From NCBI GenBank assembly GCA_903813345.2, contig CAIIXF020000006.1:16124348-16188347 (forward strand): 64,000 nucleotides of DNA. The letters are read 5' to 3'. A program made the translations under genes and the position numbers. Position 1 is the stretch's first letter, and every line of letters begins with the position of its first letter. The notes under the pieces were generated by a model. That model was given only the letters and a program-made list of their open reading frames with translations, did no database searches and was not told where the DNA came from. The DNA is from Owenia fusiformis. Taxonomy: Eukaryota > Annelida > Polychaeta > Sabellida > Oweniidae. Positions 10,156 to 57,384 of this stretch are shown here, piece by piece.

Positions 10156-10300
10156 TTTGTAAACCGGAAATGAACGTGGCTTTCAGTAGAAAACCGAACG
10201 AGTGGTCGTTCGAGATTTTTAAACAAAATACCGACTTTACGATACCATTCACATTCGTTTGACTTTCAAGGGGCAACAAGGCCTGGACTGTATAGAGAAA
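10156..10300 (-). promoter_or_regulatory. ZIP7 5' untranslated / proximal promoter region
   Basis: This is the sequence immediately upstream of the ZIP7 ATG. It contains 'aacgtggc' (a CCACG half-site on the minus strand) and a small palindrome, 'cgaacga..tcgttcg'. A CCACG core is found in ER-stress elements, which could suit an ER transporter, but one half-site is weak evidence. No TATA box is evident. Confidence 0.35.
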
Positions 10301-33150: not shown

Positions 33151-34321
33151 GACTACTTCTGATTGGTTAATACCTCACCTCAGCGGTAATTTTGAAACAG
33201 CTTGTTCTGCATATAGCAATCAAAGCGGAGAGCAATATTTGAGCTGTATATTAGATAGAAGAAACACTGCAATCAGCATTCATCGAATCAAGTGATCATA
33301 AAATCTCCTGGATTGGCAGTATATTGGTAAACATCCACCACAATACAGCCATTATCGACAAGTACACTAGTGAAAGGAAAGCAGAAAGCTTGGATTCAGG
33401 ATTTTCTGGGATTGGTTTATCATGTTTATACTGTAAATAGCTATACATGTATATCGCATGATGTAAACATCAATACCTACTTTCAACCTGGATTTACAAA
33501 TATATACAGAATCAGGACTAAGTCTATAATAAACACAAAGGCAGGTGCAAGCCTATATTCAACATACCATTATATTATTATATATTATTGAATAGAAGAC
33601 ATAGCTTCACTTGAATCAACAATTGGACTTTAACGATTGGCCGATTGGTTTTCCACTAGATTATATAAGGAGGGAATACTTTGAACTGATTGATTATAGC
33701 AGTTTAATAGGTACCAACTTCAGTTTGAGAGATAACTAGGTGAAGATTGAAAGACAGTAGTTGAATGATCAAGGGATCTCGAGATTAATACTAGCTAATT
33801 AAAACACTATTGCAGATATCATTCTCTTGGGTACTTGTATCTTCAATAGCATCAATATCTCAACAAACGATCTATATCTATTCACGATTTGGTGAGAACT
33901 TGGCCGATAATTCTACAAACGAACCAGGCGGGATTTGGAACCAGTAGAGCTAGAAGATTATACACATTTAAAATAAGATCAAGAGAGATATGAGAAAGTA
34001 GTCACATGAAATTCGATCCTGAGAAATTAGCGGAACATTGCTCCTAAGTGACTAATAGGTACTAGCTGGGACCAGAACTTAGACATTTTCCAGACTCCAA
34101 GAGGTATCTATAACCCATGTTATCTTAACTGATGAGAGGTGCGAAAGCAATGTTTGGTTAGTATCACATGCTTAAGGTCTGACCTCTACACATCTTCATT
34201 AAAGACTCCTGGTTATTTGCTCTGCTAAGACACTATAGAAGATTTACAAGACATTTGTATTTGGTTCGATTGATACATATAGGGATTCTATACTACATGA
34301 TTTGGACTGTCATAACACACC
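33151..34321 (+). promoter_or_regulatory. Candidate internal promoter and 5' untranslated region for first exon B
   Basis: An inverted CCAAT ('gattggttaat') lies near 33163. The sequence from about 33240 onward changes to a more mixed composition, as in an untranslated first exon. A TAA in frame with the start occurs at 34313-34315, six bases before the ATG, so translation cannot begin upstream in this exon. The transcription start is not determined. Confidence 0.3.
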
Positions 34322-34640
34322 ATGTATATGGATAAAATATGGAACGGCGTCACAACTGATACGTCATCAAGTTCCGAATGCACATCACACTCAGGATCTG
34401 CTGGTTACTCTCATAGAGGGTCTTCAATTGACATACCCCTGTGTTCACTGCGAAGACCTGCCCATTCTAGGGACTCCTTAGATTCATCGTCAGAAGACGA
34501 GATATATCATCAAAATCGTAATATACTTTCCATGCGCAACAATAACACTATGCCTTGTATGCTATTCGCAGACCGCCAAAATTCAACTGTTGCTTATAAG
34601 GAGAGCAGGACACGGACTGCAATGGTGCAATCATTTAGAG
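34322..34640 (+). CDS. Alternative first coding exon B (Ser-rich N-terminus)
   Basis: It starts in a good context (caccATG) and has an in-frame TAA just upstream. It encodes 106 residues plus one base, rich in Ser, Thr and Arg (for example TSSSSECTSHSGS and RDSLDSSSEDE), and is probably disordered with likely phosphorylation sites. The donor is 'tttagag|gtatgg'. It ends in the same split glycine (g|gt) as exon A, so both can feed the C2 exon. Confidence 0.65.
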
Positions 34641-37600
34641 GTATGGTATATAACTTCTCAACAGAAGGTCATGCTCAAATGTATTAAATTTGAAGTGAAT
34701 ATTTGAAGTAAACTGGGCATATAATTCCCCATTTCCCAAATAACAGTTAGAGTAAACATATTCCTACAAAATTCTTTACATGGATTTCTATAGGTGTATA
34801 AAATTGTTGATATTAGGGTCATACAGAATTTTCCATTTCACAATTTGTTGTCTACCATCTGTTAAGACCAAGGCATCTGTTCTTTCTAGAGGCAATCTAA
34901 CTAAATGAAACTTTCCTCTATATTGAACTAATTTCATTTTATCAGAAAAGTTATTATGACTTCTGATTCCACATGCTTGATCAAAGTTAGTGAATAATGA
35001 AAAAAGTATCATAAATCTCTATATCTATTACAAATATCTTGCTCGTATCCAGATTTGGTGAATGAATCATTTGTTACTCGAAAAACAAAATTTTGATTTC
35101 TCAGTCTCAATATCCCAGATTATGTTTCCTTATAGGTTTAGTATTTATTGACTATATTAAAAGCTTTGAATTGTGAATATGGATCATGAGAACAACATTT
35201 TAAAAAGAATTAAACTATTACACTGTTTGTTGTTGTCACAATAGGTTATATTAAGGACAGGTGTGGTAGGTTTTCTCTGACAGTTTTGATAAGGGTTTCA
35301 ACATGGATTGTTTCTTGTGTTTGGTTTCTATGGGAATGTTTATCGATTCTTCATTAAATTACTCAAATTATAGAACTATGATTAATAATTAAACAAGGAT
35401 TAATCTTTTAATTTGGATACTGATTTGGAGAATGTACATTAAATATAGATATAAGGGAAAGTAAATGAGATCAGGGGGAGATAGATACAGTATATGAGTA
35501 TCAAACCAACAGACAATCAGCGAGAGTGTATTGTAGTGCATTTCCCCATATTAAATTACAAGTAGTTATTGCAATTATGAAACTTAAATTGAAACAAATG
35601 CCATCTGTGCAAAGCTTGATAGCAAAAGATAAGCAGTAACAAGCCATTTAGCAATGAATAATATACAGGTAGGGTTTAACCCTTTCAGTATAGCTCTATC
35701 ATTTTAAGTCATTAGTATATTAGTTTTGCAGAGTTATGGATTGCCATGCAATATAATGGTCATAAATGTGCACTGTTATTGTTTGAAAATTGATTTAATA
35801 TGAAAAATTATAATGTTCTATCATGCCTATTATGGTGCCCACAGCCTCTGCTTTTTTCTCATGCATTTAAAAAAGAGGGACTGGTAAACCAGAAAGTGTT
35901 TCGCCCATTTTAGTGAAAGTATTTCCTCGGTTTAGATTGATTGTGACACTTCCAAAGATATGAAAGGATTACACATTTAAAACTCTCATTTGTTGAATAG
36001 ATAAAATGGTTGAAATTATCATTTAATTAACGCAGGTCTATTTGCATATCCTGTATCCTCCTTGTCACCTGATTACAGGTAGAACAGGTAAATACAGGTA
36101 AAACTTGCCTCGATCATATCCAACCCCCCTCCCCTCCTTTATTTCACTTTCAGAACTATAGATCTAAGGCTAGGGGGGCTTATTGGGATCACAAGGGCAC
36201 AATGCGGGATTATTCTCTCATCATTTCCTCTCCAGAATAAGAAATAGATTTTTGAAACATATGAAAGTGTTCTTAATTTTCTCTTATCATGAATGGGAAA
36301 TGTAATTTGAATAATCAATGTAACATCCTGAGTCTCAAGACAGTCTGTCTGGGACTTCAAACATACAAAAAAAATATTTGTTTAAACATGTATAATAAAC
36401 CATGATGAAATGGTAATTATCGTTACTTTGTATTGTGATTTCCTAAGATCTATGATTGATGTTTAAATAAGGTTTTTATTTCCTTGTTTGTCTAATTTAC
36501 TGATGTTTCAAATTGTTCTAGGTTTTTTTGTTGTTTTTTATTATATTTCAAGTTGAATACAAAACTTTTTCTGAATATCATAACTGTCATACGTGTATAT
36601 TAGCATTTTCATATTGTATACTTCACAGATATTGCAAAATTCACATAATTATAATTTACACTTTATATCAGACAGAACTATTTTTTACTAACAACAGATT
36701 ATTATATTGTTTACTTTATCATTCTTATATTAAATATGTATTTGTAGGTCAATTGAAGCTGTCAGTTTACATGAACTGCGGTCTGCTAACCATACACAGT
36801 AAGTCAAAATTCACCTTGTGTTTCTAAATGTTGCACCTTGGGGTACTTAACAGAAAGAAAATTGTAGTTTCAAATGGAAAGTTAGCTAGCTTCATATAGT
36901 ATCGTGTTTTCGGAATATCAGTTTAGACATAGATACTAAATGTAAATGTTGGAATCAATTTTCTAGTTATTGATTACAATTTTGATTAATGCCCTATAGA
37001 AAATCATGTCTTTTGGAGTCCACGTGGGATGTAGTACCATTTGTTGATTTCCCCAATGGGCACACAATCTTCAGTTTCATTTTCAAGCTTACATTTGTGG
37101 CTTGCAACATCTTTGATATATTACCATAGAAAAATGGAGTATTTTCATGTAAGAAATCCTTTTTTGTTATTGTGGCTGTCAGTTTTATCGAAGCATCTCA
37201 TCAATATTGGCCATTGAGTCCTCAATTGACTAATTTCCCCCATCCCTACTCCAACCACCAAGGTTACCTAGCCCCTGGTGTTTGATTAGTGGTCATATTG
37301 CTAAAGTCATGGTCTCTCCACATGTGCCACATGCAAAGTGTTAATCTTCTGTGACCACGCAGTTGGAGGTCCAAAATATTGAACCATTTTTTGTCTCCCA
37401 AGTCTTGTTGATTGATAATTAAAACAATTGCTCATTTGTATATGTATTTTTTAATGGGCTAATTAGGTATTAGTGACTGTCACGATGCCATCACTCTCTG
37501 GAGAACCCCAGTATGAAGTCCAAAACACGGCACCATTTCTTTCACCTATACAGTCTTTTTGATTGAGAATTCAAACATTTGCTCATTTTTTCAAATTGGA

Positions 37601-40600
37601 TTAAGTAGTGTTTTAAAAGTGAGCTTCATATGGTTTAAGTCACGCTTTGCATCAAATCCCAGCAGTGCCCCCTGCAAGTTAAGTGTCTTATCAGTTGGGA
37701 TATTTACATCATTTGCATGATTCATACTGATTTGTTTTCGTTAAAAAAGCATCAACATGTGTCATCCCTATTAGGATGCTGGGACTCAGTGATAGTCACA
37801 CATTGGTCTGTAAATGTGACATCTCACCTTGTTTTGAACAACATGCTAGAAGGTTCTTGTTAACATAGTATTTATGATACAAACTAAGATGTTGGATAAA
37901 ATTTGGGTTGTTCATTTGGTCATATATGATATAACCATGTTTTGGATCAAGAATTGACCCCAAACTTTATATTCTATATTATATAAGTCAGAGTGCCTTT
38001 AATCCATGTTAATAAATACTTGAATGTGTACTTGAATGTGAACAACAACAATGTACTACTGTTGAACGGGGTCAATACAATACTTGAATCAGGTCAATAA
38101 ATCTGAATATTTTCTCCATTATCTTGGACACCACTTATCAGTTCCAAATTCCTCAGATGTAAAATCTCTCATGAAAACTACAGTATCTGAAATTGGATGT
38201 CTTGGGTAATAACTTCTTGATCAAATGAGGCCAATCCCGATCTTCAATTGCCTATCTTAATCGAATAAATAGTCACATTACCTCTTAGTGTTTGACCCAT
38301 CAATAATCAGAATCAGTAATTGGCCAAATTTTAGTTTATAAGTAAATCTAAGACGCTACAGAATTCTGATTACGATGTAGTAAGATATCATGAGTACATT
38401 ACATGCCCTTTAAGTACTAACAGAAATTGGCAATAAATGTCTTCAAGAAAGATCGCTGTCTTGTTTTTCCCAATTTTATATTTTCTCAGAACTCTGATAT
38501 CTGTAAGACAAGTAAATTACAATCAAGGCTTTGGGTAATAATAGTAGCTTCTTATAGAAATTTGCAAGAGTCTTACAAGAAAATAGCTTGTATCTTAGAT
38601 ACTTAAGATGCCTTAATTATGTCTTCAAGACAAATACTGTCTACTTGTAGCTTTATCTTAATAATTTGAGCTGAGCTGTGTCATTGTCAAGGACTTTTTT
38701 GAGTTATGCCTGACAGGAAGAGGAGTCAACGTGATTTCACTTTTCAATTTGAATTAGTCGTTATAAAGATTACATTGTCTCTAGGTTCATTATAATGTCT
38801 CAACGGTTCATTTTTATTAGTGTATTGCTCCTTTGTGAGCCATTTCACAAGTAATAAATAATTGAACAGAAAATTGAGGAATTGTTTAAAAGAGCTTTTT
38901 CCAGGTTTGTTTACAATATATTACTATGGTTACAGTTGTAAATAGTTAATCTGTTTTATAAAACACAATCAACGTGAAATGATTGATAAATCAAATCAAA
39001 ATTTAAACAAGTCTTACTTATTTTCTGTTTCAGTTGTCCAAGCTCGTGGCCTAACAAACAAAACAAAAAGTCAATGCGATTCTTATATAAAGATGTCGCT
39101 GTACCCTGATGATGCCAAAAGAACACATTGTAAAACAGAGATGGTCTACGAGACTAACAACCCAGTATATGACGAGAAGTTCTCTTTGTAAGTATCCATT
39201 ATAGTCTTTTGAGTCTTTCAAGTCTGACTTGACCCTACCCTATCGAGCCATCTACTCTGCCTGATGAACTTGTGGGGTGTAAGTGGGGCTTTCAGGGAGT
39301 TAAAGTCGCACAAAGCAAGACCATAATCATTAATTTCATAGAACATCTGAATTCAGTTGATCCACTGTCATTCTTTTATGAATTATTGATGTCATAAATG
39401 ATATGACATGTCTTGTCAGTCAGTAATATAAATATGATAAATGTCACAAAATATGGACAGTTATTAACATTTGATAGTATTTTGATCCAAATATGTTTTT
39501 CTTTTTCACCACCATCTATAGATGTCACTGCTTGTACCATACTGCAGTCTTGTTCTACAGCAGCTACAAATCAAATATTTTACCATGGTCGACATATTAT
39601 TGATTACGGCTATTGTACACTACTTTGGAAATAACTAGATGAAACGTTTTATTTTTTAAGTGAGCTACTGGACGGAGACAAGAAAAAACGATTGCTGATA
39701 TCAATCTGGCACAGAGACATTAAAAAAGAGTAAGTAGTGTTATTTATCAATTATTTAACTCAAAGCCTATTTTTTCAATCCAACGGAAAAGTATTTTTAG
39801 CTGCTAAATAGACAGTGTTATCTTGCATTGTTCTCTTACCATTTATGTATCTTATTAAACTCATGTACAAAATCTTCAGTGTATGAATGGATTGGTGGAA
39901 ATCTCATTTTTAATTATCTTGAGTATTATGGATTTTCTGTTTTTATCACATTGCGACCAGTTGTTAATTATTTTTTCATGGCTAATGTGATGAAGAGGTA
40001 ATACGTTGGTCTTATCGGGATTTAATCAATGAAACAACAGAAAGCCCGAGTTTGTATTTAATCAGTGTAAGGTCATTTATTTAATCAGACGCTCGGAGCT
40101 AGTTCACTTATTTCATTAGTACTATTTCATTTATTTAAATTCGCTTCTTTTGAAGATATGCATCATGAATTTTGGGATAAATTAAGTGTGTGGAATCTTT
40201 TGAAAAGATTCCTTGACAGTGTGGTGTAGCATGTTAAATACAAAAGGAAAATTAAGCAATCAGATTTCTAATGAAATTATGATAAATTAATCTTTGAACA
40301 AAGTTCAATTATACAAAAATTTTATATATTGTTCATTTGCTTTCTTTTTTTAAACTTCTCTACTCATGTATGTAAAATACCATTTTACCGTGATATGATC
40401 AAATTATATATTCTTGCCACATTGAATGTTAACCCGTAAAATATAAGTGGTCATGTTTTAAAATAGAAAATAGAGTGAAAAAGAGTGGAATCAGCAAGGA
40501 ATGAAGAAAATAGGTATGTTTTCGATACTCTAAATTATATAGAAATGCAAGAAAGCTATACAGGTTATTCAGATTTTACAGAGAAAAAGTGTATATTTTG

Positions 40601-43600
40601 CATGACTATATGGAAAGTTGAGGCATGTTGACGCTGATTCTCTATGACAACAAGATGCCTGATTTGTCTTATCATATTGTGCTTGCTTCAGATCTAAGAC
40701 AATATATGCAGTATTCATTTTAGTAATACATGTACATGGTTATTGGAATGACCTTCATTGCATTGACCTTCAATGGAATTAAAATACAAGAATTATCTTC
40801 TACACGAGATCCATGTGTTTGTTCAATTCCGTCTGGGACTGGAAAGGTATTTAACGTGGATGTAAACCATTAGCACATTTCTAAATGATGTACTATAGTG
40901 AAAAGTCTTTGCGGGAATTCCCTATAGATATACAATGTACAATCTCTAATGCAATTTTTTATCTCATTAAATTGTTTCTGAGAAAAAAACTCTTAACACG
41001 GCGTTCGACACAAGAAGTTCTTCATTCAGTGAATGACTTTATTGAAGGTTATGTAACTACTGCACGAGTACTCATTAAATCTTCCCCATCTGTTAAAGTT
41101 CACACTCCGTCAAGAGAAGGTATGTTTTTTATAGCGCATTTGCAGGCAATGTTGTTTAACTTCTAATACGATTTCTGCAACTCATTATTTTTCACTGGGA
41201 AATCTTGTTAAGGTTGTGTCTAATGAATGTTTGTAAGGGAATGGATTAATGTGAATCTTTCTGTATTAATTCTTCACAATCGAGTTGACGACAATATCAC
41301 AATATGATTAGCACGAACTATGGTACATTATAGTGCTTATAATGGTGATGTTCGTGTTACGATAATTTCTCATTATATATTCCCTTTCCGAGATTTTATT
41401 AACATGTGCTGGTTGTTGGTCACTTGTTATGTTAAGCTTACATGCTGATTTGGAGACGACGTGGGTTATTGTACTGAAAGTTGTTTGAATATGAACAGGT
41501 GAATGATGAGTGGGCTGATTGTTAATGGTTACTGAATATAACGTTATCTTTGGATTAGGAAGGGTTTGCTCATGTAATATCTCGCATTACTTCTTTGTGA
41601 ACTCATAAAAAGGATGCTGATGAATTTTTTATGAGCTACCTGACTTATCCATGTCTCTACCAGTTATAAGAGGATTAATGGGCATACTGCAGTTAAAACA
41701 TGTACATGTTCTTCGATGTCATTGATTCAAGCGACTCTGGTTATAATCATCATTTGATACAATATTTCTTGTAAAAATTTTTTAGCATTTCTATACAATT
41801 TAGCATGTTGGCTTCATGTAGATATATATTATTTTGAACTTTTTTCATTCGTTTTTACCAAATTTTGCATTTTAAAACATCATGTTATGGATATTTCTAG
41901 TCATGCTTATGTTCAATGTTTTCTCTTTCCCTTATCATGGAAATATCGATACACTGTAGTATATAAGTCCAGTGGATGATTTGATTGATCATGTTTATTT
42001 TTAGTTTTGTTTTGTTGATTTAAAAATAACCTTAATATCAATATTAGACTTTATTTATCAACATCTGTGTTATAGTTTCAATTGATCGATATATTTGAAT
42101 CAATTGATTTAATATATAGTTTCATTGTTTCATGTTTCTTTGTTTTAATTCCCTATGTCCCCCCCAATAGCATTTCCTCTCCCTGCCCTGTGCTTAAGGA
42201 TGGCCATTTTATAGGATAGTATGGGGAGGGTGTAGTCCATTGGGGATTTTGTTGAATCTACAATCATGAATTTATTAGATTGTATGGGTAGAAAATATGA
42301 TTATTTTGATATTATTAAATCAGTTAATTTAGAAATTTGCTGTAGGTCATAACGCACAATGAATTGACAATAAGATAACTAGTTTTTCTGTTATTTCTGG
42401 AATTACAAGTAAAACAATTATATTGTTAATGAGGTGTGTAGAACCAGCTAAAAATTGTTCAAGCGTCACAAAATTAGTCACAAAATCTCGAGCTTGACTG
42501 ACATACACACTTGTACATATTATATGGTACTAGAGAATGGAAGTTATGATAGACATGAAGAACATTTTTGATGGAGGTTTTTTTCCTGGATGGCAATTTG
42601 GAGTAATCAGTAGCATTTGTTATGTTCTTGAGTTTCTCTGATTCATCTGATTGATTTCAAAGGAGATATTATCCTCTCTAAAATTGGATGAAGGATTGTA
42701 TCAGTGTTCACTGTACAATATGTGATGAAACTATTTATCATTTCCTTGTATTTTTCAGACGCAGTGAGTTCCTTGGTTGTATGTCATTTGGGCTGAAGCA
42801 TCTCTTGGCCACAAGCAGAGTAAGTAAAATATATTCATCCTAAACTCAAGATCTCGTAATAAAGTAAAAAGAATTCTCTACAGTGCTCCTTACCCCTGAG
42901 ACTCTAAATTTCAATTTTATAATACCGTGACATATTCCCCAAGACTTTATATTTCAATTTTAGATCATTGTGACTTATTTGTTATTATTTGTACTAGCGT
43001 TTTGCAAGCATCGCTGGGAGTGTCATAACGTAATCCCCCATAGAATTGGCAGAGAATTGATTGGTCGATCAGTCACGCCAAGCTATTTGTATCTGTCTCG
43101 GGAGAATCTGAGTCTACGTGAAAATATGATGAATTTGGTATTATATTGTAAGACATGTGATGGATTATGTATGAAAATAATAATAGAATTTTCAAGGTGA
43201 TTTTAGTATTGTGTTATTGTTCTGAAAGGTATCTTATATTAAAACATTGCGATTAGGTACATATTCATTTCCTCCTTATATTGTGCTAGTTCGATCAGAT
43301 GTTATAGAGTCTGCCTGGTCAAGTGAGTAAATATAGGTATTAATGCAAATATGATGAACACTGAGGTCATCTATACAAATACAATCATATTATAAAGCAA
43401 TTATCGTAAGTAATCTAGTGGAATACTTGTTTACGCTGGTAATTGGAAATCAAACTTGTAATTTTAATTTCATATTTCTTATTCAGTCAATATTCCTCTT
43501 AACTTGAATGAATGGAAATTAATAGACGCGAGAAACAAAAAAATGGGATTTCGTTTTAAAGTGTAGTTATCTGTTTACAGACAATCACTGGCTGGTACTA

Positions 43601-46600
43601 CTTACTGACAGAGGATATAGGACGCAAGAAACATCTACGTGCGACAGAAACAACAGTTCCAACTCAGCCACCACTTCCACAGAAAAAAGGTATTTAAAGA
43701 TCATTGTAACTCTAATGGATCTATTGTATGGATACACATGTATGTGATACACATATATTTCCAATTTTTCACTTTTGGGAAACTAATACCAGCTGATATT
43801 TACGTGGTAGTAATCATATCAAAAATATCAGAATCGCAATAATTTCACATGTTTGTAATTTTCATCATTTAACCTTGAATGAGCCACTTTGCAGGTTTTA
43901 TCTACTCCATGGCTAGGAATTATTACCCTTTTAGAAAATTATCCAAGCCCTTGTGGTTTCACTGGAAATTGTTCCATGTGAAGGTGACTAATAACACATA
44001 TAGGATGAACAAATGTGAAGTTAACACCCCTGACAAGAGGGAAATATATTCTAATTAACCAGCTTTTCTGATTATTTTCAAGAATATTGTTAACTCTTTT
44101 GACCATAGTAAATCTCCCGTAAGGATAAGTACAGCAGGGCTATGGGAGAACACGGGCGAATGTCATCAAATCCCCATCATGCTTTCCAAGTAGTAATAGG
44201 GCTATGAGAGAGAACTTTGTTCTCACAATTGCAAACTTTTCCAATATACAAACTCATCTATTTATAACATTATTAATTCCCGATATAGTTTTTCTTTTCA
44301 CTTTTTGAATTGATCTATTTAAATGTGAATACTATAACTGTCTCAGTAATTTTTTTCTCGAGATTATTATTTTTGGAAAAATCATGCTATATGTGTCTTG
44401 TGTGAAACATAAATCTGTTGTACTAATTGCACTAGTGTTTGAAGAAATGTTGAGGTTTTCTTTTAAAGTAGACTATAAATGGGCAGATTAATTAAGTTTA
44501 TTACATTATTGGTATTTCACAGTCTTCTCTGCTTCAAGTTCGTAAACTATTGTTGACATAGTATGTAGGCAAATCTGAGATCAAACAAAAAGATCTGTGA
44601 TTTATATCTGTTTTCATAATTCCATGAAGTAGAGGGAAAATTGCCAAGGAAGAAAGTGAAAATATTGTTTCTCTTGTCATGTGAGACTTCTTTGTCTTTT
44701 AAACAGTCTCATTTTTGCATTTCTGCACAATTTATAATACTATCCATAGTTCTGATATGTCTGCTGTTTTTATCCTTACAGAATTCATTATATTCAAGTG
44801 TATTTAGCATTTTTAACATGAGCACTTTCAAAATGACATTTAATCTGAGGTTGTGTGGTCAAGGGGCAAACCTTATTAGACAAGACATCATCAGTGATGT
44901 ATGAGGATGATGCATATAAAATTAAAACTACAGACACCTTACCCAATGTGCTCCATACGCCTTATATTAATAGAATAAAAAATACGAACAATTATTATCT
45001 GTGATAATGTACATTAATTTGAGTTATTAGCACCAATTATTTTTGAAGATTTATTGAAGGTTACACGTAGAATAAGTCTGTGTTTGTTGGATAATTTGCG
45101 AGGTTGTAGTGATCAATGGCTCTTGTTATTCCATGACATTTTATACCAATTAGGTGGATTGCCTGCGATTGAGGCCTCTCAAACAGGAGATGGCATTCAG
45201 ATGCTAATGAGCGTGACATCCTAAACTACAACATAGTTATCAATCAATACATTTTTTATACAAGACATGTCAGTCACCAGATATTGAACATAAGACGTTC
45301 ATGAACATCCTGTATTTGGATCATATTACACAATTATTTTAGTGCATAGTCTTCTGAAAAGAAACCGCACGCTCTTTTCTGAAGAAATCAATTATCTAAA
45401 AGTACATTCCAGTGATATTATTATGACTTACAAGATCTAGCGACCATATTCAGTTATGGTCTTAATATGGTGCCATATATCATGCAGTAGTTGAAAATGT
45501 ATGTAACATTTTCCTCATATTTTAGCCATTTTGCCCATTCTCATAAAGTACCCCTCCTTAGAAAACAAAAAATCTAGATTTTTCTTGGATCTCTGCAGTA
45601 ATTATGGAAATTATTTGACAAGCTCTATAATCTAATATTTAAGGCACCTAATGGTGTCATGCCATGTAATTGATTTATTGAAGCTTTTTCCAAACTACCA
45701 AGATTCACACATTTTCGTGGCAAGATTTCTGTTTTGATACGATCGATATGCAACCGTGTAAGATATAGCTCCAATCACATTTCACAATTCAAGCGTCATG
45801 CAAACCGATATGTCATTGTTATTTAAAGCTATCTTATATCGTAAAGTCATTTTGCATGATGAAAACATCATTTCATATTTCACAATTCTACAGCAACAGC
45901 TGTGACAATTAATGTACAAGAAATAAATAGGAATTTAGATGAACTGATTAACAAGCCATTCAGTCGTGAGGTAATCCACCCAATATTCTAATTTACCAGA
46001 CCCAATGTTGCAATTCCTGATGAGAAATCGAAAGAAAAGTTGGCGTGGAATATTAAATTGTTAATGAGTTAATGAAAACATCTAATACATGTTTTTGTCC
46101 AAGTATCTCGGCTGGAATTCTGGAAAGGGTCTTTATTTTGAAGGGTTATTAATTTATTATTAATTTATTTTTTTTATGTTTTTCAGTACCCTCAAATATA
46201 CCACCAGTGAACAAAGATGTCTTGTGGATGGAATCAATTACAGTAAGTTTATTAATTTTATATTTTACATGGTCCTCAATGGAAAATATTTTGGTCAGTA
46301 TTTTGAGATTTTTCCATGACAGATGTGTTTTACTTGAACAGGGGAGTTTACTTGATGGAGGTGTTCACTTTTACAGAGGTGTTCTCTTGCCAGAGGTTTT
46401 CACTTGGTAGAGGTTTTCACTTGGTAGAGGTGTTCATTTTGACAGGTTTTGGTATATTAGAAGTCAGTATCAGGCTGACATTTAATTTTGAGGATTTCAA
46501 CGTAACGTTTCTCATTTTCCTTTAGGCCAACTTTGTTATAATTCAAGGTCAGTTACATTCATTTGAGATTCTTTCTTATAAGCTTATCATTAATTGATTC

Positions 46601-49600
46601 ACTTGGGTAAAACGAAATTGCTCCATGTCATGTCTACAGATTTCGTAATCTGAGTGATTTTTCATTTCTTTAGATTCTACTGTGCTTATTCAACCTTCGT
46701 AGAACAGAAATCGGACAGTGGGTCTCTCTAACCTAAAGGAACATTCTGTACTTTCACTAACAGAGAAGCTCAATGTTGAAAATGTTCTTGCATTTTAAGG
46801 ATCTTAATCTTGGCTGTTGTCCCCTTATAAAGTACATGTTTTATATTACTTCTTTGTGAAATGTTTTCCTTCCCTTAAGTATCCATTTACTTATTTCTAT
46901 GATATTCAAAAAGCAAGTTTCAATTTCGTTGTTATTGGCACATTCGTAGTGGCGCCTTCAATGATATAAAACCTCCGATCAGGCAAGCATCATCCACTTT
47001 GGGGACTCCTTCATTCTCTAATCGAGCCTTTAGGATTTTAGCCATTAGTCATCAAACCAATACAAGCAAAGATCAGACTAGAATCTAGATGACATATATT
47101 CCTGGCCCCAGAGGAAGAGGATTTCAATAATTTGTCTATACTTCAAATTGACAAATTGCCATAAAACAAATATCAATGACATTCAAATGTCACTGACAGG
47201 AGAATCTGGTTATTTTTACTTTCCGTTTTACCAGATTTACCCACGGGATTAGGAATGTGACGCTAACCAGAAGTATTTTACGCCAAGCTAGATAGGGCAC
47301 TGTCAAATATCTCATCATTAACACACCAGTGATTTATTGTGATTTTATTTTGATCTGGTTAGGCCCAGTTTGATTCAATTCATCTCGTCACACAAATTTA
47401 ACGAAATGAGTTGCTCTGGAAAGATATCTTAAAGGTTAAAGATTCTAGGTCTTATTTCAAACGTATCTGACTTTATGTGACATATCACTTTAGATATTCT
47501 CTTAAAATATCTTGCATTACTTTCAGTATTTTCTTGCATTAAGTATTTTTCGCATCACTAAGTATTCTCTTGCATCTCTATATATTCTCTTGCATCACTA
47601 TATATTCTCTTGCATCACTTCAAGATTGTCTCATATCACTTATAATAACAAGTTCTTGTTCTTTAACACTTTTTTATTAATTTTGATGATGAATATAATA
47701 CACACGTATCTGCATTTCTCCATGAAAACAAGTAAATGCAGTGCGTAATATGTATACGGAAATATGTTTTGAAACATGCCATCATTCTGCTTCATACGGG
47801 AATTGAGTTTTAGATTAGCTAAAAGCGTTACTTAGCAGTAACTAGTAGGAAATAAAAAAATCAGAATTTCTCTTCTATTTAAATATAATGTTAAGGATCT
47901 AGTATATTTCAATTAGTGTTGTTCTGTTTCTACTTGGTTATCATTCTTTCCAGATATCTGATCCCTTCCATATTTCAGTCTTACACTGTCACTCTCTTAA
48001 TAATAATTTTTATGCATCACGTGACCTCGAGTGGCCAATTAATATCAAGTATTATAAAATATTTGATAAATGATCATGGGATTGAAAAGGTTGCTTTGGT
48101 GAACATAGGATACAAGTAAACGCTTCACCGAGCGAAATGTTTCTGAAACAACAGGCTTTCAAGCTTTGCAAATTACCATGGCTACAGATTTCATGTTTCT
48201 ATGGCGTTTTTTGTCTCAGACAATAAATTGAATCATACAATTCAAATCTCACATTGTTCCATATATATTAAGAACAATAATTATTGCTATTTACACTTAG
48301 CTTACTTTACCAGCCACTGACTCGACATAAATTTCAGTGAAAGATCAACGATCAGGTTTTAAGATATATTTTCATGTCGATAATTTTGGCCACTAACAGA
48401 AATGGAAAACTATAAAGGATATTCATAATTTTGATGAAAGGTATCACTTTCCAGTGCCTATAGAAGTTTAGGGCCTCGTTAAATGAAGATGTTCATTTTG
48501 CTAGAGTTGCTTGCATGCCTTGTTAGAGTGTATTAATGTCTTTGTAACACTTATAATCCTGCTCCTAACCTGATGACATATATCTGATCATGCTTACTTC
48601 TTTTCTCTAAAAATTGATTGAAATAAATGAATATCTTGGGTTTCCATACACTTTGAAGTGTTGACTAAATAATAAGAACTGTATTGCTTGCTGGGTTTAC
48701 TCTTTGCCCGTGACTTTGAATTTTGAAATATGGACATCATGATGTTTCTATCATGGGCACTGTACTGCTCTGCAATTAAGTGTTCTTTATTGGGTGGTGT
48801 GGGTAGCTATGTAATTGTCTTATATCCATGGCTATCTTATTAGATTGAAAGAAATGACATCTACGTGTACTCACATTGTGCTCTTGCCATACGTTATGAT
48901 ATCTCAGTCCTTCGGGAAATATATTACCCCATGGTCTCTAAAAACAATATCATTGGGTGCGTCATTTTTCAATTTGATGACTTGTTTTTCGCCATGCGAA
49001 TCACCAATGCTGCAAGGAATCAAACACGATAATGTGTATATAGCATTATAGCATTTCTAAATTCACCTGTAATTGTGTATGTTCTGGTCATCAGGTGTTT
49101 TCCAAGTAGACATCCACTTAGCTGTATGTTTTGTTATTGAGAATAATCTTTTTCTGATTCAATCAACATCCAGAGGCCATATAAGGTCAAAAAAATTACA
49201 CGCCCATGTCCCATTAATCTCTGGCATTCTAAATTGAATTTCGATGGTGTATTATGACAAATAGACCTGCTATCTGTCTAAATAGCCACATGATTAAACA
49301 CATTAATCCAGATTTCATACCAATTAAAATTGATTCCAAGAAATACAGATCTGTCAATAATTTCTTTTGAACGCATATAGAGATGCAATAAATGTATGTC
49401 ATTGTTACAGTTTGTAAAGATAAAGAAATCGTGTTTGATATGAATGCGAAAAGCTCAGTTTGGGATGACAATTTCGATGACATGACAAATGACTCTAGTA
49501 ATGTAACGAGAGTCATATTTCAATTCGATAGTGTTCTCTTGTCAATTCTTTGTCACAACAGCTTGTTGAGTCTATAAAACCCATAATGTCATCGCAAACC

Positions 49601-52600
49601 TATAGCCCATTATTTAACTGTTAATTACAGTTCTGGATTTTATCAGTCAAGATTCATTTGGGATAATACATTTTTATTTGCCCTTTTCATGTATCTGAAA
49701 TAAAACGGATTAATTGATGTAATTAGGGTATAGTATTTAAATCTACAACACTATCATATTATTTCAATGTCATTAAACCTTTCCCATTTTTACATGTTTT
49801 TTATTATGAATTGAAATATATCTTATGGGGTAATAACTCATGGAGCCTTCTGGGATATAAGCACCTTCTCTGAAGCATGCTGGGTAGATATTATGGAAGT
49901 TAAAGGCCTGGGTTGTAATATCAGACACATGAGTACTGTCTAACGTGTATGATCATTACACACCATTGTACATTCCCCCATGGGTATTGAAGCATCAGAT
50001 CAGGAGAATATACTGCATGGTCTGAATAGGTCTCTGTTAATACGAGAGGAATGAGATTATTTTGCAATTTTTTTTGAATTGTTGCGCATGAGATTTATTT
50101 ATCAATTAAGTGAAGTTACTTGAAATTCAGATCATTCATTCATTCAGACTGATTTGCTGCTTTATTGTTATCAATGTTGTTTTGTTATGTAATATGATAT
50201 CATTGTTTTTCCAGCTTGTGATTGGTCGAGGCAGGAAGGGTTATGGGTTTACAGTGCTCGGCTCAAGCCCAGTTAGAATAGGGCGTGTTGACGAAGGTAT
50301 GTACTGTTTACACTATATTTCTAAAGAAAATATGACAACATTTCGATTCTAGTTGTTTAACCCATGGATGCTCACATGTCAAAGTGAAATTTAAAGTAAC
50401 AACAGGAACAACTGGGAAAAGAGTGGAAAAGACAAGAAATGAATACACAATTTTCTTCACACTCTAATTTGTATGAAAATTAAAAAAAATCAGCTTACAT
50501 CAAATTTTATTGAGCAAAAGTGTGTTTTAACAGGAGTAGACTGACTTCAATGAAGATCAATCAATTCATATAACACACTGTATAAACATACCACAACGAG
50601 TAGACCATTACAATAACAATCAAATCAAATATACATACTCAAGCTAAATAGATATTTCTTGGAAGATATTTTCTTCCATTGGTATAATATTGATATTTGG
50701 TATAATATATGCATCCTCGGGTTAATTCAGTTTGATTTTAGTTAAAATTGAACTGACACTCGAGGTGTTGTTTTAAATTATTTTCACTACTTATATGTGA
50801 CTTCTATCAGCCGATATCACCTCAGTGTGTTGAGATTAAAGGCAACATGTTGTTCTCACATCCAATGAATATAACACACAATCGTAATACTGCCATACAA
50901 AGTTACTGAAACCAATCAATTTAACAGGATTACCTATGCTATTTCAAGCCTATCAAAAATCAATAAAATTCTGAAACTGGATCTCGTTTGCTACACTTTC
51001 AGATGTTTAATTGATATACAGGCTACCATTCAATTTTACATCATACTTTCAAGAGACACCTGAGAAATCTTGTCATATAATTACCAAGAAAATTAACATA
51101 TATTACAACACAGATGCACTTCGAGACACTTAACTGTTTATATGGTCACCATGGTTCACCGTCTATCAATCTTATATTCTTAATTATAGTTAACAAATTT
51201 TACGTTGACTCATTATTTATAGACTTCCCAAGTTATGTATTTTATACAATGCAGTTATAATTCCAATTATTTGTAATTCACTTGCTCACATATGATAACA
51301 TAACTCACAAAAGATCGGAGGACACGATGCTTTTAGATACTTTCTCACAGGAGATTGACTTGATACTTTTTCCAATTCTGTTGATGCAATGATAATAGAC
51401 ATTTCAATTAGCATCCACATATGGAATTTTCAAGTGTCATTTGTAATATGTGACAGATAATAATTGGCTTATTGAAACTGTGTTGTTATTGAGTCGCTTT
51501 TGTTATTTATTTTTTATGGTTGTTTAAATTTAGATCAATCTGAGTATTCACCATTTTTCTTCTTTAAGTATATTGGATGTAAGATAATATGGATAAGAAA
51601 TGTTACGCGAAACAGAATTAAGAGCTGCTATAATTATCTTTTCATGGAAGATCCTTGAATCTAAAAAGACAAAAAATGATCATTTATTGTGTTCTATGTT
51701 TAGGATCCCAAGCCCACAAGCAAGGCCTGGAGAAAGGAGATTGTCTAGTGAGAATCAACGGTCAAAATGTGTCAAGGTCATCAGCGGAAAGCATTGTTCG
51801 TATAATCAGGTAATACATTATAAAGAAATTAGAATAATGGACTAAATTAAGTTTCATAATTTCTGCTGAGGTTCTTACGTATTGTTTTATATAAGAGTTT
51901 AAGGAATTCCGAAATAAATAAATTGATTTTGTGTATAGGTACTTGCACTAGATCAAATACACCTATAGAATTCCTCAAGCTATCAATAGATCATGCTTTC
52001 GTATTAGTCAATATTGTTTTGACGCCTTCAGAAGTATTACTTGAGATAATATGTAATGCAATTATTTTTACTGAAATATCACTTTTGAACATCTTTTTTA
52101 TTTAGACTGTCGACTAAACAAATTGTCTTGGATGTCCAACGTGCCAGAACTGTCACAGATATTCCAGAACCTCATGTTACATTAATGGACAACGTAGACC
52201 GCAACCAAAATATTGAAAAATTCAAAATGGCTGATGACTGTAAAGAAAATATGGTAAAGCACGCTGGGATTAGTACAGTGCCACCTATTGGTACCCCTAA
52301 GAAACTGATGGATGAAGAGAGAAGAACACAGAGCGAGCCAAACCTTGAAGCCTTAAACACATCATCGGTGCCACAGATCATGATTGCATACCAGGTTGGT
52401 CAGAACTAGCTGTTCATTTGACATTGAAATCTGATTGATTTCCATTTCCCATCAGGAATTTGTGTATACAAGAGATAGAAAACATTTCCTTTTACAGCGA
52501 TACATTAAAACAATATTGATGCAATCTAGATTATTACACTTAAAATCAGTTTTCCATTTGTATTCCTTGACACTGAATTATGAATGTTTTTAAAAATGAA

Positions 52601-55600
52601 ATAAAAGTTTTCATGCTGTTCAATTATAGGACTTAACTGAGCAGGAAAGGATGCGACAGCAAGATATCAACGATCTAATAACACTAGAGCGAGAGTTTGT
52701 GATGTCAATGCAGCATGGTATCCAACGATTTTCCAGACCTTTACGGCATCGTTTAATCTCCCCACACGAACACGCAACACTCTTTCAAAACATTGAAAAG
52801 GTAAACGATTTTTCATTGGTGAAACCTAATGAACTTGTCTATCCTCATACTTGTACTGAACATTCAAAATCATATATATGTACAAACGTAAGAAAATCAA
52901 GTGAGTTTTATAGAAGAATGTTTTTTTAATTATAAACTATAGTTGTGAGCTCAAAGTTTACCTTTAATTTGAGGGCAATGTCTATAGTTTGAAACCAGAG
53001 AAGGATTAAGTGTTTTTAGTAACAAATGTCTGAAACCTGAATTCCTACTGATGTCATTGTGACATCACAATATTACTTTGAGAGACATTTATGAAATGTC
53101 AGATGATGCTTTTGTTTATTTTTGAACTGAGTTTAAACAGAGTTAGAGTTTATAAGATCCCACTCTGAGGATTGCTAGATATTTACTCTCGTGGAAAATA
53201 TCCCAATTAAAGGAACAGTATTTTGGTTATTTTGGAACAGGTTGGCTGCTAATGGAGTATAGGGCTCACTGTTACATCTCCTCCCCGATTCATAGATTTT
53301 TGAATGTTTTCTTTTAACTTCAAACTCAGGCTAGTTTGTGGCTTCATTATAGCATTATCTTTGTTTTCTGACTATTCTTAAGGGTTATTGATTCATTTTG
53401 CATATGATTTCTGATCTAAAGCCTCATTAATTATGCAATTTCTAAGGGAATATTGGAAAATGCTATCATTTAATAACTATGTAACCTAGCTTTTGACTTA
53501 ACCATTTCAACAGTTTTAATTTGAGGTTTTCAAGAAATTTTCTACTTTTCTGAAAGAATGTCTGAATATTTATTTTAAGTCAATAATCGCTTTTCCAATC
53601 ATTTATGTGAAATGAGTACATATAGCACGATCACAATATTTTTTCTAAATTACTATAGGAATAGAGGTCATTGCCAAGATTCTTGATATTTTGCCGATAT
53701 TAACTGGATTGGTTATCTCTATTTGCCCTTGTTGCAGTTTCAAAATATCTCGCAAATCGGATATTGGAATATTTTTTCCATTTTCTTAATGTCACGGTAT
53801 AAATTGCTTTGTAGAATAGATGTCATTTAAGTTGAGCAAGATCCATATTTGTCATCAAACTGTATATTACACTTCACATCGTAGACATGCTAATTTAGTT
53901 TTAAAGGGATAATTTGAAAGAATCTGTACAATTTATTGCTGGTTCTAATCTACCACCTTTCTGCTAATAGACCAATTTTTCTCTTAATTCTCTGGCTCAG
54001 AGATCCACTCTAATCTTAATAGTTACACGCTTGAAGCTTAATCTAATAACCCCATGATGTCAGTAGATGCCATTCAACATTTAACGTTATTCCTCCAAAT
54101 TTCACAAAAAATTGATAAGTGTCTAAATTTCAACAACTGTAGAATTGTAGAGTGTTAACTCCAATCCAGATTGCTTCATGCTAAATCCAATCTTTTGTAT
54201 CCTATTTTTCGTTCTAAAATACATTGTCAAAAATTTTACTCTTGGGTTATAATGTCTTTAGATACCATTATGGGACTCAAATGCCCACTCACTTTAATAA
54301 TCAAGGCACTTTTGCAATTATGTTTTAGGTACATTCCTTGAAATTTCCTAATATGGTGTGACGGAAACATAAATTCTCGAAACTGATACAAAAATGGGCA
54401 GTAGTGTCTAAAAGGGATTTATAGCTATTCAAAAACTTGTACAGGACTGGATATTATCACTGGCTTATCTTTTTTATTACTGTAATAAAGTTCTTCAAAA
54501 TTATTTCATAATTTTCTTTTTTGTTCACAGTTAGTGCTTATATCAGAATGTCATCTGCGGCAGCTACGAGAACAGTCAATTCTATACTCTGATGTCCCCG
54601 ACCAGACAATCGGATTTGTGGATACTGTAGGAGGAACATATGTACATAAGGTAGGTTTGAATCTATTTTTAATTAAGTTTTATTTGAAATAATGTTTTCT
54701 TAATCCTTTCTTCAAGTACATATCAGTATTTTTTTTAACTTCTGTGATGTTTATGTGAACTTGGTAGACTTTTCATAGGGAATCTGTTTTGATTTTTAAC
54801 TCTAGCGTCGTTCTACACCATTCTCCCATAATCCTTAGCTATATCTTATGTCTTGATGGCCTTCATTTTCTCGCGTAGTTACATTGCTTATCTAACTTGT
54901 TTGAGTTCAGTGTAGAGACATAAGAACTCCCGCTAATGTGGAGTATTTGTTTGTGTATGCCTCAGGATAAAATCAATATCCAACCCTCTAAAGGATAACT
55001 CAAACTTTGCGCTTTAACCTAGAAAAATATTCTTCATCAATCATGTACTAAAATTAAAATTGAAGAAATCAAAAAATGTGGAATGAGAATGATACACAGG
55101 TATCACTCTTTAAATTCTGTGGAAATGTACTTCTTTTTAAAACAAATACAGTTTTTGGTGCATGACAATAATTGATATTTTAGTTTTGGGAGTCCAAGAC
55201 TGGAATGACATTCAATTGACACAGTGTCATTTATCTTATATCGAGATGTTTTTATAACTAAATTATATATTGGGGGACTTCCGTTTGTTATGATTGCATC
55301 AAAATGTATGGTATCACGTTTGTTGACAGAGCATTCCTCATTATTATACTTGTTCATGATTTATTCTAATGTTATGTATATGTATTCCAATAGATCCAGG
55401 TCTTATGTGATGCATATGAGATCTACAGTCGAGGATTGCGGAGGGCCGAATCACTCCTCGCAGATTTGAAAAAATACAATGAGTTCAACACATTTCTGCA
55501 GGTGAGATATTTTCTTGAATATTTTTTCTCAGTTTTTAAAATTAATCGATGGTAAATGGAATAGTTTTGTTCAATTATAGCACAGATGCACTGGACTAAA

Positions 55601-57384
55601 AGAGTTTCATTCTATTTTGTACTTAATTAGCCAACTTTGTAAATTTCTCATTTCATTATTTTGTCAATATTTGAAGTATGTATATAAAGTGTAGGACTTT
55701 TCAGAACATTAATGATTAAAATTGAATTATTTGATTAAATTTTCCTTTTTCATTTTCTTATAGGAACAAGATTCCTTCAACCAGAAGCTGATGCTTGAGG
55801 ATTTTATACGACAGCCAATCTTATTTATTCGTCAATTCTACCGCCAAATCAACGTGATAGCCTCCAGCACTGCTGAGCTGCATTACGATTTCATTGACTT
55901 AGACAATGTAGTACAAGGTAAGAATTTTGAATTTTTCATTGATTTACGTTTCTTATATCCAAAAAAGGTGATGATAAAATTTTATATTAAATTACTTCCT
56001 TTCAGATTCGTTGTCAAAATAAGAAATGTGTTGCCATGTTGACTATTAGTGGCAATTAGCCAAATTATCAGTATTTTTTCGTTTATGTCTATTTTTAACA
56101 AGTAATATTACTCACTATAAACAACAAAACACAAACCTTAATAGTTTAGCTTTTATTTCCCTTGGGAACATCTAATTCAACTTTGATTTATTTTGAATTA
56201 TAGCCATGGAGCAAACCTGCCAAATTATCCACGAACATTTAACATTGCGGCCAAGTAGTACAAGCGGAGGATCAACGGGGTCACTCAGCCAAGGACAGAT
56301 GTCACAGGAAAATACTGGGGATTCTGGGAGTTCAAGGTCACCGCCCGAAGCTCCCTGTCCATCAAGAACGTCTACTCAGTCAATCCAATCTACATCGTCA
56401 TTGGATTCAGATGTGTTGGACATACAATCCAAACTTATCTTTTCGTCATCTGTACCTGTAAGTATAATGATATATATAGATAATTAATTGAATAAATATG
56501 ATTAATAATTCATAAATTTGGTATCAATGCTTATCCAGCTTTACCCATTTAGTAGGATATTAGGCTTCAGAATAACTGATTTTAATCTTAATTACAATCA
56601 TTCACATCTTCAACTTGGTTTCAGACTCTTAAAATCTAACATCATTTTATTAAAAGATAAACATGTTATTTATTATATTCAAACCTTCATTCATTTTATT
56701 AAACCCATCATTAAGCACATTTAAGGATATGTAAGTGTGCCTACAAATCATCAATAATTACATTACATGTACCATCAGTGAACCCTGCTATAATGATTCT
56801 TTATCTATTTAAAGGCATTCACTTTGTCCACTCCTGGAAGACATTTGATATACTCTGGTGACCTCCTATACACTGAAAACAGAAAGTGGATCAAGCTTAA
56901 TGTTCTACTATTCAGCGACTTGATTCTCCTGACAAAAATGCAACAAGATGGCCGCTACGCTGTGATAGACGAACCATTGAATTTACATGAGGTTCGAGAG
57001 ATGGATTTCGATTGTGAACATCGTAAGTGAAATCTTATACAGAAGATTAAAGATGTGACTAAAAGGAATATCTTTCTTTATTTTACATTTCTGAATATAA
57101 TATGATTTAATGCAATATAATTATTTTACTTAATGCGTAAAATTATGTTTTATACTTATGTTTTCATTTTTATATTTTCAGCTGCCGAATTTGAATTGGT
57201 ATCAGAACGAGGCAGTCACGATTATTACCTAAACTGGAATGCACGCGTCGTGACATTACGTGCACCAACAACTGAACAGAAATGTACGTGGAAGAGTCTA
57301 TTATCGCAAAGAATCTCCACTTCTTGTCGCTCAATCCCACATGAGTTGTCCACTGAACGGGTAGGCCAGCTCGCAATATTGTGA
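34322..57384 (+). CDS. RGS3-like C2-PDZ protein with RhoGEF (DH-PH) module, isoform B, 837 aa, 17 exons
   Basis: Exons: 34322-34640, 36748-36798, 39034-39187, 39661-39729, 42759-42819, 43581-43689, 46187-46242, 50215-50296, 51704-51809, 52106-52394, 52630-52800, 54531-54650, 55394-55501, 55764-55917, 56204-56457, 56815-57022 and 57182-57384. All are GT..AG and in phase, totalling 2514 nt with a TGA stop. Order: Ser-rich N-terminus (1-106), C2 (about 107-245), PDZ (about 266-350), linker, DH (about 436-640), Ser-rich insert (about 641-695), PH (about 702-820). By family knowledge, DH-PH proteins load GTP onto Rho GTPases, while C2 and PDZ domains give membrane or partner binding. The C2 and PDZ parts resemble vertebrate RGS3, but no RGS domain is found. 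Likely cytosolic and membrane-associated. Confidence 0.85.
36748..43689 (+). CDS. C2 domain exons (five)
   Basis: The exons are 36748-36798, 39034-39187, 39661-39729, 42759-42819 and 43581-43689. The product runs from GQLKLSVYMNCGLLTIH through NPVYDEKFSFELLDGDKKK and FLGCMSFGLKHLLATS to ITGWYYLLTEDIGRKKHL. The GQL.LS start, the LGCMSFG.K.LL segment and the .GWYYLL.E..GR.KHL close are shared with RGS3 as I recall it. The second calcium loop has His-Arg-Asp and Arg-Ser-Glu where classical C2 domains carry several Asp residues, so calcium binding is probably weak or absent (inference). Confidence 0.85.
40885..41119 (+). CDS. Alternative first coding exon C (would skip the C2 domain)
   Basis: It lies inside the intron between the third and fourth C2 exons. 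A TAA stands directly before the ATG at 40885, in frame. It runs 78 codons plus one base to a good donor, 'agagaag|gtatgt'. The peptide is MMYYSEKSLREFPIDIQCTI onward and ends KVHTPSRE. Its phase (1) does not fit the next C2 exon but does fit the exon at 46187, giving a 661-residue PDZ-DH-PH form without C2. No domain is recognised in the exon itself. Transcript support is lacking. Confidence 0.4.
46187..52150 (+). CDS. PDZ domain exons and start of linker
   Basis: The exons at 46187-46242, 50215-50296, 51704-51809 and the start of 52106-52394 encode the PDZ fold. Its first strand is SITLVIGRGRKGYGFTVLG, with KGYGF as the carboxylate-binding GLGF-type loop. Next comes the A-H-K-Q-G-L-E-K-G-D-C-L-V-R-I-N-G turn, then the helix SAESIVRIIR and the last strand QIVLDVQ. 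The helix alpha-B position that sets ligand class holds Ser/Ala rather than His, so ligand class is not obvious. RGS3 has a PDZ domain in the same place after C2. Confidence 0.85.
46320..46460. repeat. Intronic copy of the 'gaggtgttcact' repeat family
   Basis: 'gaggtgttcacttttacagaggtg', written here as 'gaggtgttcact' plus 'tttacagaggtg', is followed by two direct copies of 'agaggttttcacttggt'. Similar phrases occur at 62650-63005 and 100-225. It lies in the intron after the exon at 46187. The open frames crossing it are artefacts. Confidence 0.55.
47495..47640. repeat. Minisatellite, unit about 22 bp ('tattctcttgcatcactata')
   Basis: Five to six imperfect copies of a unit with core 'tattctcttgcatcacta' lie in tandem in the intron between 46242 and 50215. 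The two central copies are almost identical. The rest of this 4-kb intron contains nothing else I can name. Confidence 0.7.
52106..52394 (+). CDS. Exon joining PDZ to DH (charged, probably disordered linker)
   Basis: This is the largest internal exon (289 bases). It finishes the PDZ and adds about 80 residues of linker, including the serine motif RRTQSEPNLE. That motif resembles the R-x-x-S-x-x-L/P type targeted by basophilic kinases and bound by 14-3-3 proteins (inference). It ends in phase 0 at 'ccag|gttggt', a weaker donor that the downstream frame nevertheless requires. Confidence 0.75.
52630..56260 (+). CDS. DH (RhoGEF) domain exons
   Basis: The exons at 52630-52800, 54531-54650, 55394-55501, 55764-55917 and the start of 56204-56457 encode about 200 residues. 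The first conserved region is typical: INDLITLEREFVMSMQHGI, then FSRPLRHRLISPHEHATLF and NIEKLVLISECHLRQLRE. A second, helical part reads YEIYSRGLRRAESLLADL. In the third conserved region the usual P-[VI]-Q-R-I..Y.LLL reads P-I-L-F-I-R-Q-F-Y-R-Q-I here, so the Gln-Arg pair is lost. The overall fold seems kept, but catalytic strength cannot be assumed. Confidence 0.8.
56204..56457 (+). CDS. Exon with last DH helix and Ser-rich DH-PH insert
   Basis: The exon opens with the closing DH helix (AMEQTCQIIHEHL) and then encodes about 60 residues dominated by Ser, Thr, Gly, Gln and Pro. Most DH-PH proteins have the PH domain following almost at once, so this insert should separate the two domains. It may be a regulatory, phosphorylated segment. 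Phases are 1 in and 0 out. Confidence 0.75.
56815..57384 (+). CDS. PH domain exons and C-terminus
   Basis: The exons at 56815-57022 and 57182-57384 encode GRHLIYSGDLLYTENRKWIK, LNVLLFSDLILLTK and a second half ending in TTEQKCTWKSLLSQRI. The LIY.GDL and LLFSDLILLTK strands, and the Trp in the C-terminal helix (TWKSLL), are PH hallmarks. Fourteen residues after the helix comes Thr-Glu-Arg, followed by a 'gaacgg|gtaggc' that could act as an alternative donor. Read straight through, the protein ends VGQLAIL-stop. Confidence 0.85.

What the first reader, a model, noticed from the sequence alone, without database searches (positions are those of the whole stretch)
34322..57384. RGS3-type C2-PDZ front end fused to a DH-PH RhoGEF, with no RGS domain
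The C2 (LGCMSFG.K.LL and .GWYYLL.E..GR.KHL) and the adjacent PDZ match the N-terminal half of vertebrate RGS3, yet the C-terminal half here is DH-PH. As I remember it, vertebrate RGS3 keeps a PH-like stretch after its PDZ but no DH, and then has the RGS domain. This suggests an ancestral C2-PDZ-DH-PH Rho regulator from which RGS3 arose by losing DH and gaining RGS, or the reverse. It would tie a G-protein regulator family to RhoGEFs by descent.
Basis: partly seen in the sequence, partly recalled or inferred. Interest (0 to 1): 0.75.

Follow-up and report, generated by a model that had tools for sequence, protein, structure and literature searches.

The report
PsGEF gene sharing RGS3's front end
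This is an animal gene of a known but little-studied kind (PsGEF, a switch-activator for Rho-type proteins), and comparing it with human RGS3 suggests that the human protein still carries a leftover piece of the same machine, so that a G-protein regulator may descend from a Rho activator.

Summary
A 17-exon model on the + strand, 34322-57384, encodes 837 aa with C2, PDZ, RhoGEF (DH) and PH domains in that order; no RGS domain was detected. The family is not new: C2-PDZ-RhoGEF proteins were published in 2009 as PsGEF (fly CG14045; insects and a limpet), with the RGS3-like C2-PDZ noted. What adds to it is the PH. Human RGS3, recalled from memory but right wherever solved structures allowed a check (C2 118/118 residues, PDZ 85/86, RGS 127/127), has after its PDZ a stretch that matches a DH-type PH model (3.6e-5, under Pfam's cut-off) and this gene's PH (phmmer 7e-6 at PDB scale; 0 of 2000 shuffles), while PDB gives it no PH hit up to E 10. 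C2, PDZ and PH are collinear. This favours a C2-PDZ-DH-PH ancestor that lost DH on the RGS3 side, against the published view that protostomes added RhoGEF. The direction is not proved: the RGS3 PH letters are unchecked, and no deuterostome or cnidarian genome could be searched.

The parts
34322..34640 (+). exon 1, Ser-rich N-terminus; ATG at 34322 with an in-frame stop (34313-34315) 6 nt upstream
36748..36798 (+). exon 2, first C2 strand (GQLKLSVYMNCGLLTIH, cf. recalled RGS3 GQLKLSIDAQDRVLLLHI)
   Evidence: not hit by tblastn
39034..39187 (+). exon 3, C2
   Evidence: tblastn with recalled RGS3 E 8.6e-8
39661..39729 (+). exon 4, C2 (FELLDGDKKKRLLISIWHRD)
   Evidence: tblastn only E 0.42
42759..42819 (+). 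exon 5, C2 (LGCMSFGLKHLL)
   Evidence: tblastn E 0.043
43581..43689 (+). exon 6, end of C2 (GWYYLLTEDIGRKKHL)
   Evidence: tblastn E 0.001
46187..46242 (+). exon 7, C2-PDZ linker and first PDZ residues; shares the top score among candidates of the phase needed (with a longer variant), least certain exon
50215..50296 (+). exon 8, PDZ
   Evidence: tblastn with recalled RGS3 E 2.6e-4
51704..51809 (+). exon 9, PDZ
52106..52394 (+). exon 10, end of PDZ and linker
52630..52800 (+). exon 11, start of DH (CR1 with the conserved Glu)
54531..54650 (+). exon 12, DH
55394..55501 (+). exon 13, DH
55764..55917 (+). exon 14, DH with divergent CR3 (FIRQPILFIRQFYRQ)
56204..56457 (+). exon 15, end of DH and Ser-rich DH-PH linker
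56815..57022 (+). exon 16, first half of PH; second-best tblastn match of recalled RGS3 in the window (E 7.9e-7)
57182..57384 (+). exon 17, second half of PH, C-terminus and stop; no RGS domain detected downstream in the window

Best explanation
The gene is a PsGEF orthologue: a membrane-steered Rho-family exchange factor. C2 and PH (inferred) hold it at membranes, PDZ (inferred) docks it to a partner protein, and DH loads a Rac-type GTPase (evidence only for the fly protein, by others). Vertebrate RGS3 is its sister by descent: it shares C2, PDZ and, after a gap where DH sits here, the same PH, and carries an RGS domain at its end. The likeliest history is a C2-PDZ-DH-PH gene in the bilaterian ancestor; the line to RGS3 lost DH, kept the PH as a remnant and joined to an RGS domain, so the same steering module now drives a G-alpha switch-off enzyme and not a Rho switch-on enzyme. 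Same architecture as PsGEF and likeness of the two PH stretches: shown here, the latter on recalled letters. Orthology and direction: inferred.
For: Domain order and Pfam scores. C2 closest to RGS3 by about 14 orders of magnitude in E. C2-linker-PDZ align with recalled RGS3 as one piece, 36% identity over 242 columns, BLASTP E 9e-48. PH: recalled RGS3 scores 3.6e-5 with SOS1_NGEF_PH over profile 6-98 of 106 (24.4 bits, cut-off 27.7); tblastn against the 64 kb window hits the PH exon at 7.9e-7; phmmer with the RGS3 stretch gives the window PH 6.9e-6, the DH-PH half 2.6e-5 and the bare ORF 3.1e-6, all at Z=177635, whereas against PDB the same query has four hits up to E 10, none a PH, best 0.36; Smith-Waterman 99 against a shuffle mean of 27.1 and maximum of 60, 0 of 2000. 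Recall checked: 118/118, 85/86 and 127/127 residues against 3fbk, 2f5y, 2oj4. Fly PsGEF: same C2-PDZ-RhoGEF order, Rac1 interaction, ruffling (PMC2684095). Daphnia lost the RhoGEF exons, a published precedent for loss of DH from this gene.
Against: The RGS3 PH letters are recalled and could not be checked: no solved structure covers them (one search lists only PDZ and RGS of RGS3), and a paper search for six of its peptides found 0. The recall was written after the window had been seen. The RGS3 PH score is below Pfam's cut-off. With the whole 837 aa as query the PH match to RGS3 is weaker: i-Evalue 0.0017 by phmmer at Z=177635, 3.8e-5 by BLASTP of the two proteins. The match covers mainly the first half of the domain. 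The PDZ tree is unresolved and puts this PDZ beside PREX2 with weak support (61/75). No trace of DH was seen in RGS3's PDZ-PH gap (best local scores 26-30 in the three pieces over the gap, 19-30 over the 16 pieces in all). PsGEF was reported absent from sea anemone, sea urchin, sea squirt and nematode, which the ancestral view must explain by loss or oversight. There are more introns here than reported for the limpet in C2 and DH. Organism unknown; no transcript seen.
Confidence: 0.72

Rival explanations
1. Published order: the bilaterian ancestor had an RGS3-like C2-PDZ gene, and protostomes added RhoGEF by exon shuffling to make PsGEF.
For: Higuchi et al. 2009 argue this from presence in insects and limpet and absence in the anemone, urchin, squirt and nematode genomes of that time.
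Against: Does not explain why RGS3 has a PH like the one behind the DH here. The phrase 'PH domain' occurs 0 times in that paper's main text, although it names PH and PDZ domains of another protein, Sif. A form of it survives if the ancestor was C2-PDZ-PH and DH alone was inserted before the PH.
Confidence: 0.18
2. The PH-like stretches in RGS3 and here were acquired separately, or the match is a chance likeness of two PH domains, or the recalled letters are wrong.
For: PH domains are common and diverse; the match covers mainly the first half of the domain (70-78 residues) and drops to 0.0017 with the whole protein as query; the recalled letters of that stretch are unchecked.
Against: Collinear position after the PDZ, E 7e-6 at database scale while no solved PH matches RGS3's, an independent Pfam PH match, and an alignment that reaches into the residues just before the PH.
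Confidence: 0.08
3. The model joins two neighbouring genes, a C2-PDZ gene and a RhoGEF gene.
For: No transcript; the linker part of exon 10 bears no domain; fly PsGEF has a short form with only C2 and PDZ.
Against: Phase-consistent exons on one strand with no stop between PDZ and DH; same domain order in insects and limpet.
Confidence: 0.04
4. The DH here is a weak or dead exchange factor and the protein works mainly as a scaffold, a step on the path RGS3 completed.
For: In the alignment CR3 departs from ITSN1, ITSN2 and PREX2: QR to LF, the basic residue before the Tyr to Gln, the helix-6 Asn to His. That the last two are catalytic in Tiam1 (K1195, N1232) is recalled.
Against: The CR1 Glu is kept; the fly RhoGEF domain gives ruffling in HeLa cells, although its residues were not seen here.
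Confidence: 0.25

Closest known systems
PsGEF (CG14045, protostome-specific GEF; insects and Lottia), PMC2684095
   Same: C2-PDZ-RhoGEF in that order, RGS3-like C2-PDZ, no RGS
   Different: A PH is found here behind the DH, which the passages and sections seen of that paper do not name; introns here: 4 in C2, 2 in the Pfam PDZ match (3 if its first strand is counted), 4 in DH, against 2, 2, 1 reported for the limpet
Vertebrate RGS3, long C2-PDZ form
   Same: C2, C2-PDZ linker, PDZ and a PH-like stretch, collinear
   Different: no DH; long low-complexity region and an RGS domain at the end (recalled sequence, partly checked)
ARHGEF11/12 (PDZ-RhoGEF, LARG)
   Same: PDZ and DH-PH in one protein; PDZ scores 1.7e-8 to 3.2e-8
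   Different: no C2; has an RGS-like domain between PDZ and DH (both recalled); weaker PDZ match than RGS3
Intersectin DH-PH
   Same: best DH match in PDB, 7.3e-8
   Different: other front-end domains (recalled); PH barely matches (4.3 bits)

Membership tests
PsGEF | C2, PDZ and RhoGEF in one reading frame, in that order | tested here: met
PsGEF | C2-PDZ resembling vertebrate RGS3 | tested here: met
PsGEF | no RGS domain | tested here: met
PsGEF | domains cluster with insect and limpet PsGEF in trees; shared intron positions | not tested
PsGEF | acts on Rac | not testable with these tools
   reported for the fly protein by others
RGS3 | C2 of RGS3 type | tested here: met
   3fbk 3e-32, next 2.4e-18
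RGS3 | PDZ of RGS3 type | tested here: inconclusive
   RGS3 first but level with RGS12; tree weak
RGS3 | RGS domain | tested here: not met
   so it is kin of RGS3 but not an RGS protein
Dbl-family RhoGEF | DH domain followed by PH | tested here: met
   RhoGEF 3.9e-14; PH_16 8.4e-5, 0.1 bit above cut-off
Dbl-family RhoGEF | canonical catalytic residues (Glu of CR1, basic residue of CR3, Asn of helix 6; roles recalled) | tested here: inconclusive
   first kept, the other two changed in an alignment with three other DH domains

The most novel reading that the evidence does not exclude
The bilaterian ancestor had a C2-PDZ-DH-PH Rho activator; vertebrate RGS3 is its direct descendant, having lost DH, kept a relict DH-associated PH that scores under the Pfam cut-off and so would go unflagged, and gained RGS. 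A regulator of heterotrimeric G proteins would then be a converted RhoGEF, and the published claim that PsGEF is protostome-specific and newly made would be reversed.
Probability: 0.6. Interest if true: 0.65.

Novelty: new member of a known kind. Interest (0 to 1): 0.5.

Why it matters
RGS3 is studied as a G-alpha GAP; a hidden DH-type PH in it would give part of its long middle an origin and a testable membrane or protein contact. It would also overturn the reading that PsGEF arose in protostomes alongside mushroom bodies, and give a clear case of one steering module changing its effector from Rho activation to G-alpha inactivation.

Tried and rejected
No whole genome is held for the window, so copy number and neighbours beyond 64 kb are unknown. 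Scans for relatives: viral contigs with the C2 (18 pattern matches, none confirmed) and the DH (7, none confirmed), genome contigs with C2-PDZ (15, none confirmed). Exon 1 joined straight to exon 3 (first model) was dropped when exon 2 was found. PDZ tree of seven rows: too short and long-branched to decide. C2 tree of only four rows (window, RGS3, PKC gamma, PKC alpha) joins window and RGS3 at 100/99. Structure prediction and fold search were not run: the tool takes proteins that the DNA gives letter for letter, and spliced or human sequences seemed outside that.

Paper searches bearing on a PH in RGS3 or a shared RGS3-RhoGEF origin: 10 of 10 listed; 6 of 6; 30 of 79 listed; 0; 8 of 8; 7 of 7; 3 of 3; 20 of 51 listed; 3 of 3. 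In titles and abstract starts shown, none reports it. Opened: PMC2684095 (abstract, passages, sections 5, 10, 13, 14), and passages of PMC2752167, PMC3484668 and PMC11722539 (the last names PsGEF only in a stock list). Most subscription papers are not held, so this is weak evidence of absence.

Full report
What is there. On the + strand 34322-57384 a 17-exon model gives 837 aa. All 16 introns are GT-AG and phases fit; exon 1 has an in-frame stop 6 nt before its ATG. Fourteen exons were read from the frames directly (with ends mended), exons 4 and 7 came from a phase-restricted candidate list and exon 2 from its likeness to the first C2 strand of RGS3. Exon 7 is the least certain. Pfam finds C2, PDZ, RhoGEF and PH_16 in order. 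The window holds no detectable RGS domain.

What family. The architecture is that of PsGEF, published from fly, beetle, louse, bee and limpet (PMC2684095). That paper reports C2, PDZ and RhoGEF, the likeness of the C2-PDZ half to RGS3, the lack of RGS, loss of the RhoGEF exons in Daphnia, a genetic link to Rac1 and ruffling in HeLa cells. A later paper finds that PsGEF is not needed in border-cell migration (PMC3484668, passages). PsGEF sequences themselves were not available for comparison.

Kinship with RGS3. The C2 matches the solved RGS3 C2 at 3e-32 with PKC gamma next at 2.4e-18. The PDZ puts RGS3 first, but RGS12 is level, and a small tree does not settle it. Against recalled human RGS3, C2, linker and PDZ align as one piece, 36% identical over 242 columns.

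The PH question. Human RGS3 was written from memory; where solved structures allow a check it is right: C2 118 of 118, PDZ 85 of 86 (the odd one is the first aligned residue), RGS 127 of 127. Between PDZ and RGS, Pfam's SOS1_NGEF_PH matches it at 3.6e-5 over profile 6-98 of 106, yet below the curated cut-off (24.4 against 27.7 bits), which may explain why it would go unannotated. A tblastn of the recalled protein against the 64 kb hits four C2 exons (3, 4, 5, 6; exon 4 only at E 0.42, exon 5 at 0.043), one PDZ exon (8) and the PH exon (16), in order; the PH exon is the second-best hit at 7.9e-7; one weak extra hit (E 2.3) lies at 9623-9685. On the PDB scale the RGS3 stretch matches the window PH at 6.9e-6, the DH-PH half at 2.6e-5 and the bare ORF at 3.1e-6. 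With the whole 837 aa as query the same match is weaker, i-Evalue 0.0017, and 3.8e-5 in a two-sequence BLASTP. The RGS3 stretch finds no PH among its four PDB hits up to E 10 (best 0.36), and the window PH finds PH domains only at E 1.1 or worse. Shuffles: 0 of 2000 reach the score. The recall came after seeing the window, so bias is possible; against that, the recalled stretch fits the independent SOS1_NGEF_PH model better (24.4 bits) than the window's own PH does (17.4).

Reading. Two facts together, a PH of DH-associated type in RGS3 and its likeness to the PH here, are most simply explained by an ancestor with C2-PDZ-DH-PH. The 2009 authors argued that RhoGEF was added in protostomes. Their negative searches in anemone, urchin, squirt and nematode stand against an old origin, but they warn that large introns could hide orthologues. 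Sea squirt has two RGS proteins with a C2 (PMC2752167, passages); if these are of RGS3 type, which the passages do not say, the joining of C2 and RGS predates vertebrates. An alternative, a C2-PDZ-PH ancestor with later insertion of DH, is not excluded.

Function. Likely a membrane-steered Rac activator, with C2 and PH contacting lipid and PDZ choosing the partner (inferred). Two cautions. The C2 keeps only some of the acidic loop residues of PKC (PKC alpha IWDWDRTTRNDF against IWHRDIKKERSEF here and VWNRASQSRQSGL in RGS3; their role as calcium ligands is recalled), so calcium dependence, assumed in the 2009 paper, looks doubtful. And the DH is divergent in CR3 and helix 6, so its exchange activity needs testing.

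Score. The gene is ordinary for its family; the PH link to RGS3 is a cheap-to-test evolutionary claim that I did not find in the papers searched (lists, two of them capped).

Noticed in passing
8813-10182, - strand: Histidine-rich ZIP zinc transporter gene (Pfam Zip 1.5e-34 for 9223-10182; 2.8e-6, under the cut-off, for 8813-9046), of the ZIP7/KE4 look (recalled).
   Followed up: partly
60091-61135: Tandem array of a 162-bp unit, 6.4 copies, 91% matches.
   Followed up: no
6221-6619: Tandem array of a 135-bp unit, 3 copies, 93% matches, with AAAATGGCGGCCATTTT motifs.
   Followed up: no
6917-7023 and 59555-59616: Two tetranucleotide arrays (GGAC and CGTC) that are the same repeat on opposite strands, perhaps parts of one dispersed element.
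   Followed up: no
39034-43689 (C2 exons): Acidic calcium-loop residues of the C2 are partly lost here and more so in RGS3, against the published assumption of calcium control.
   Followed up: partly
55764-55917: CR3 of the DH departs from the PxQRxxRY-like pattern of the three DH domains aligned with it.
   Followed up: partly
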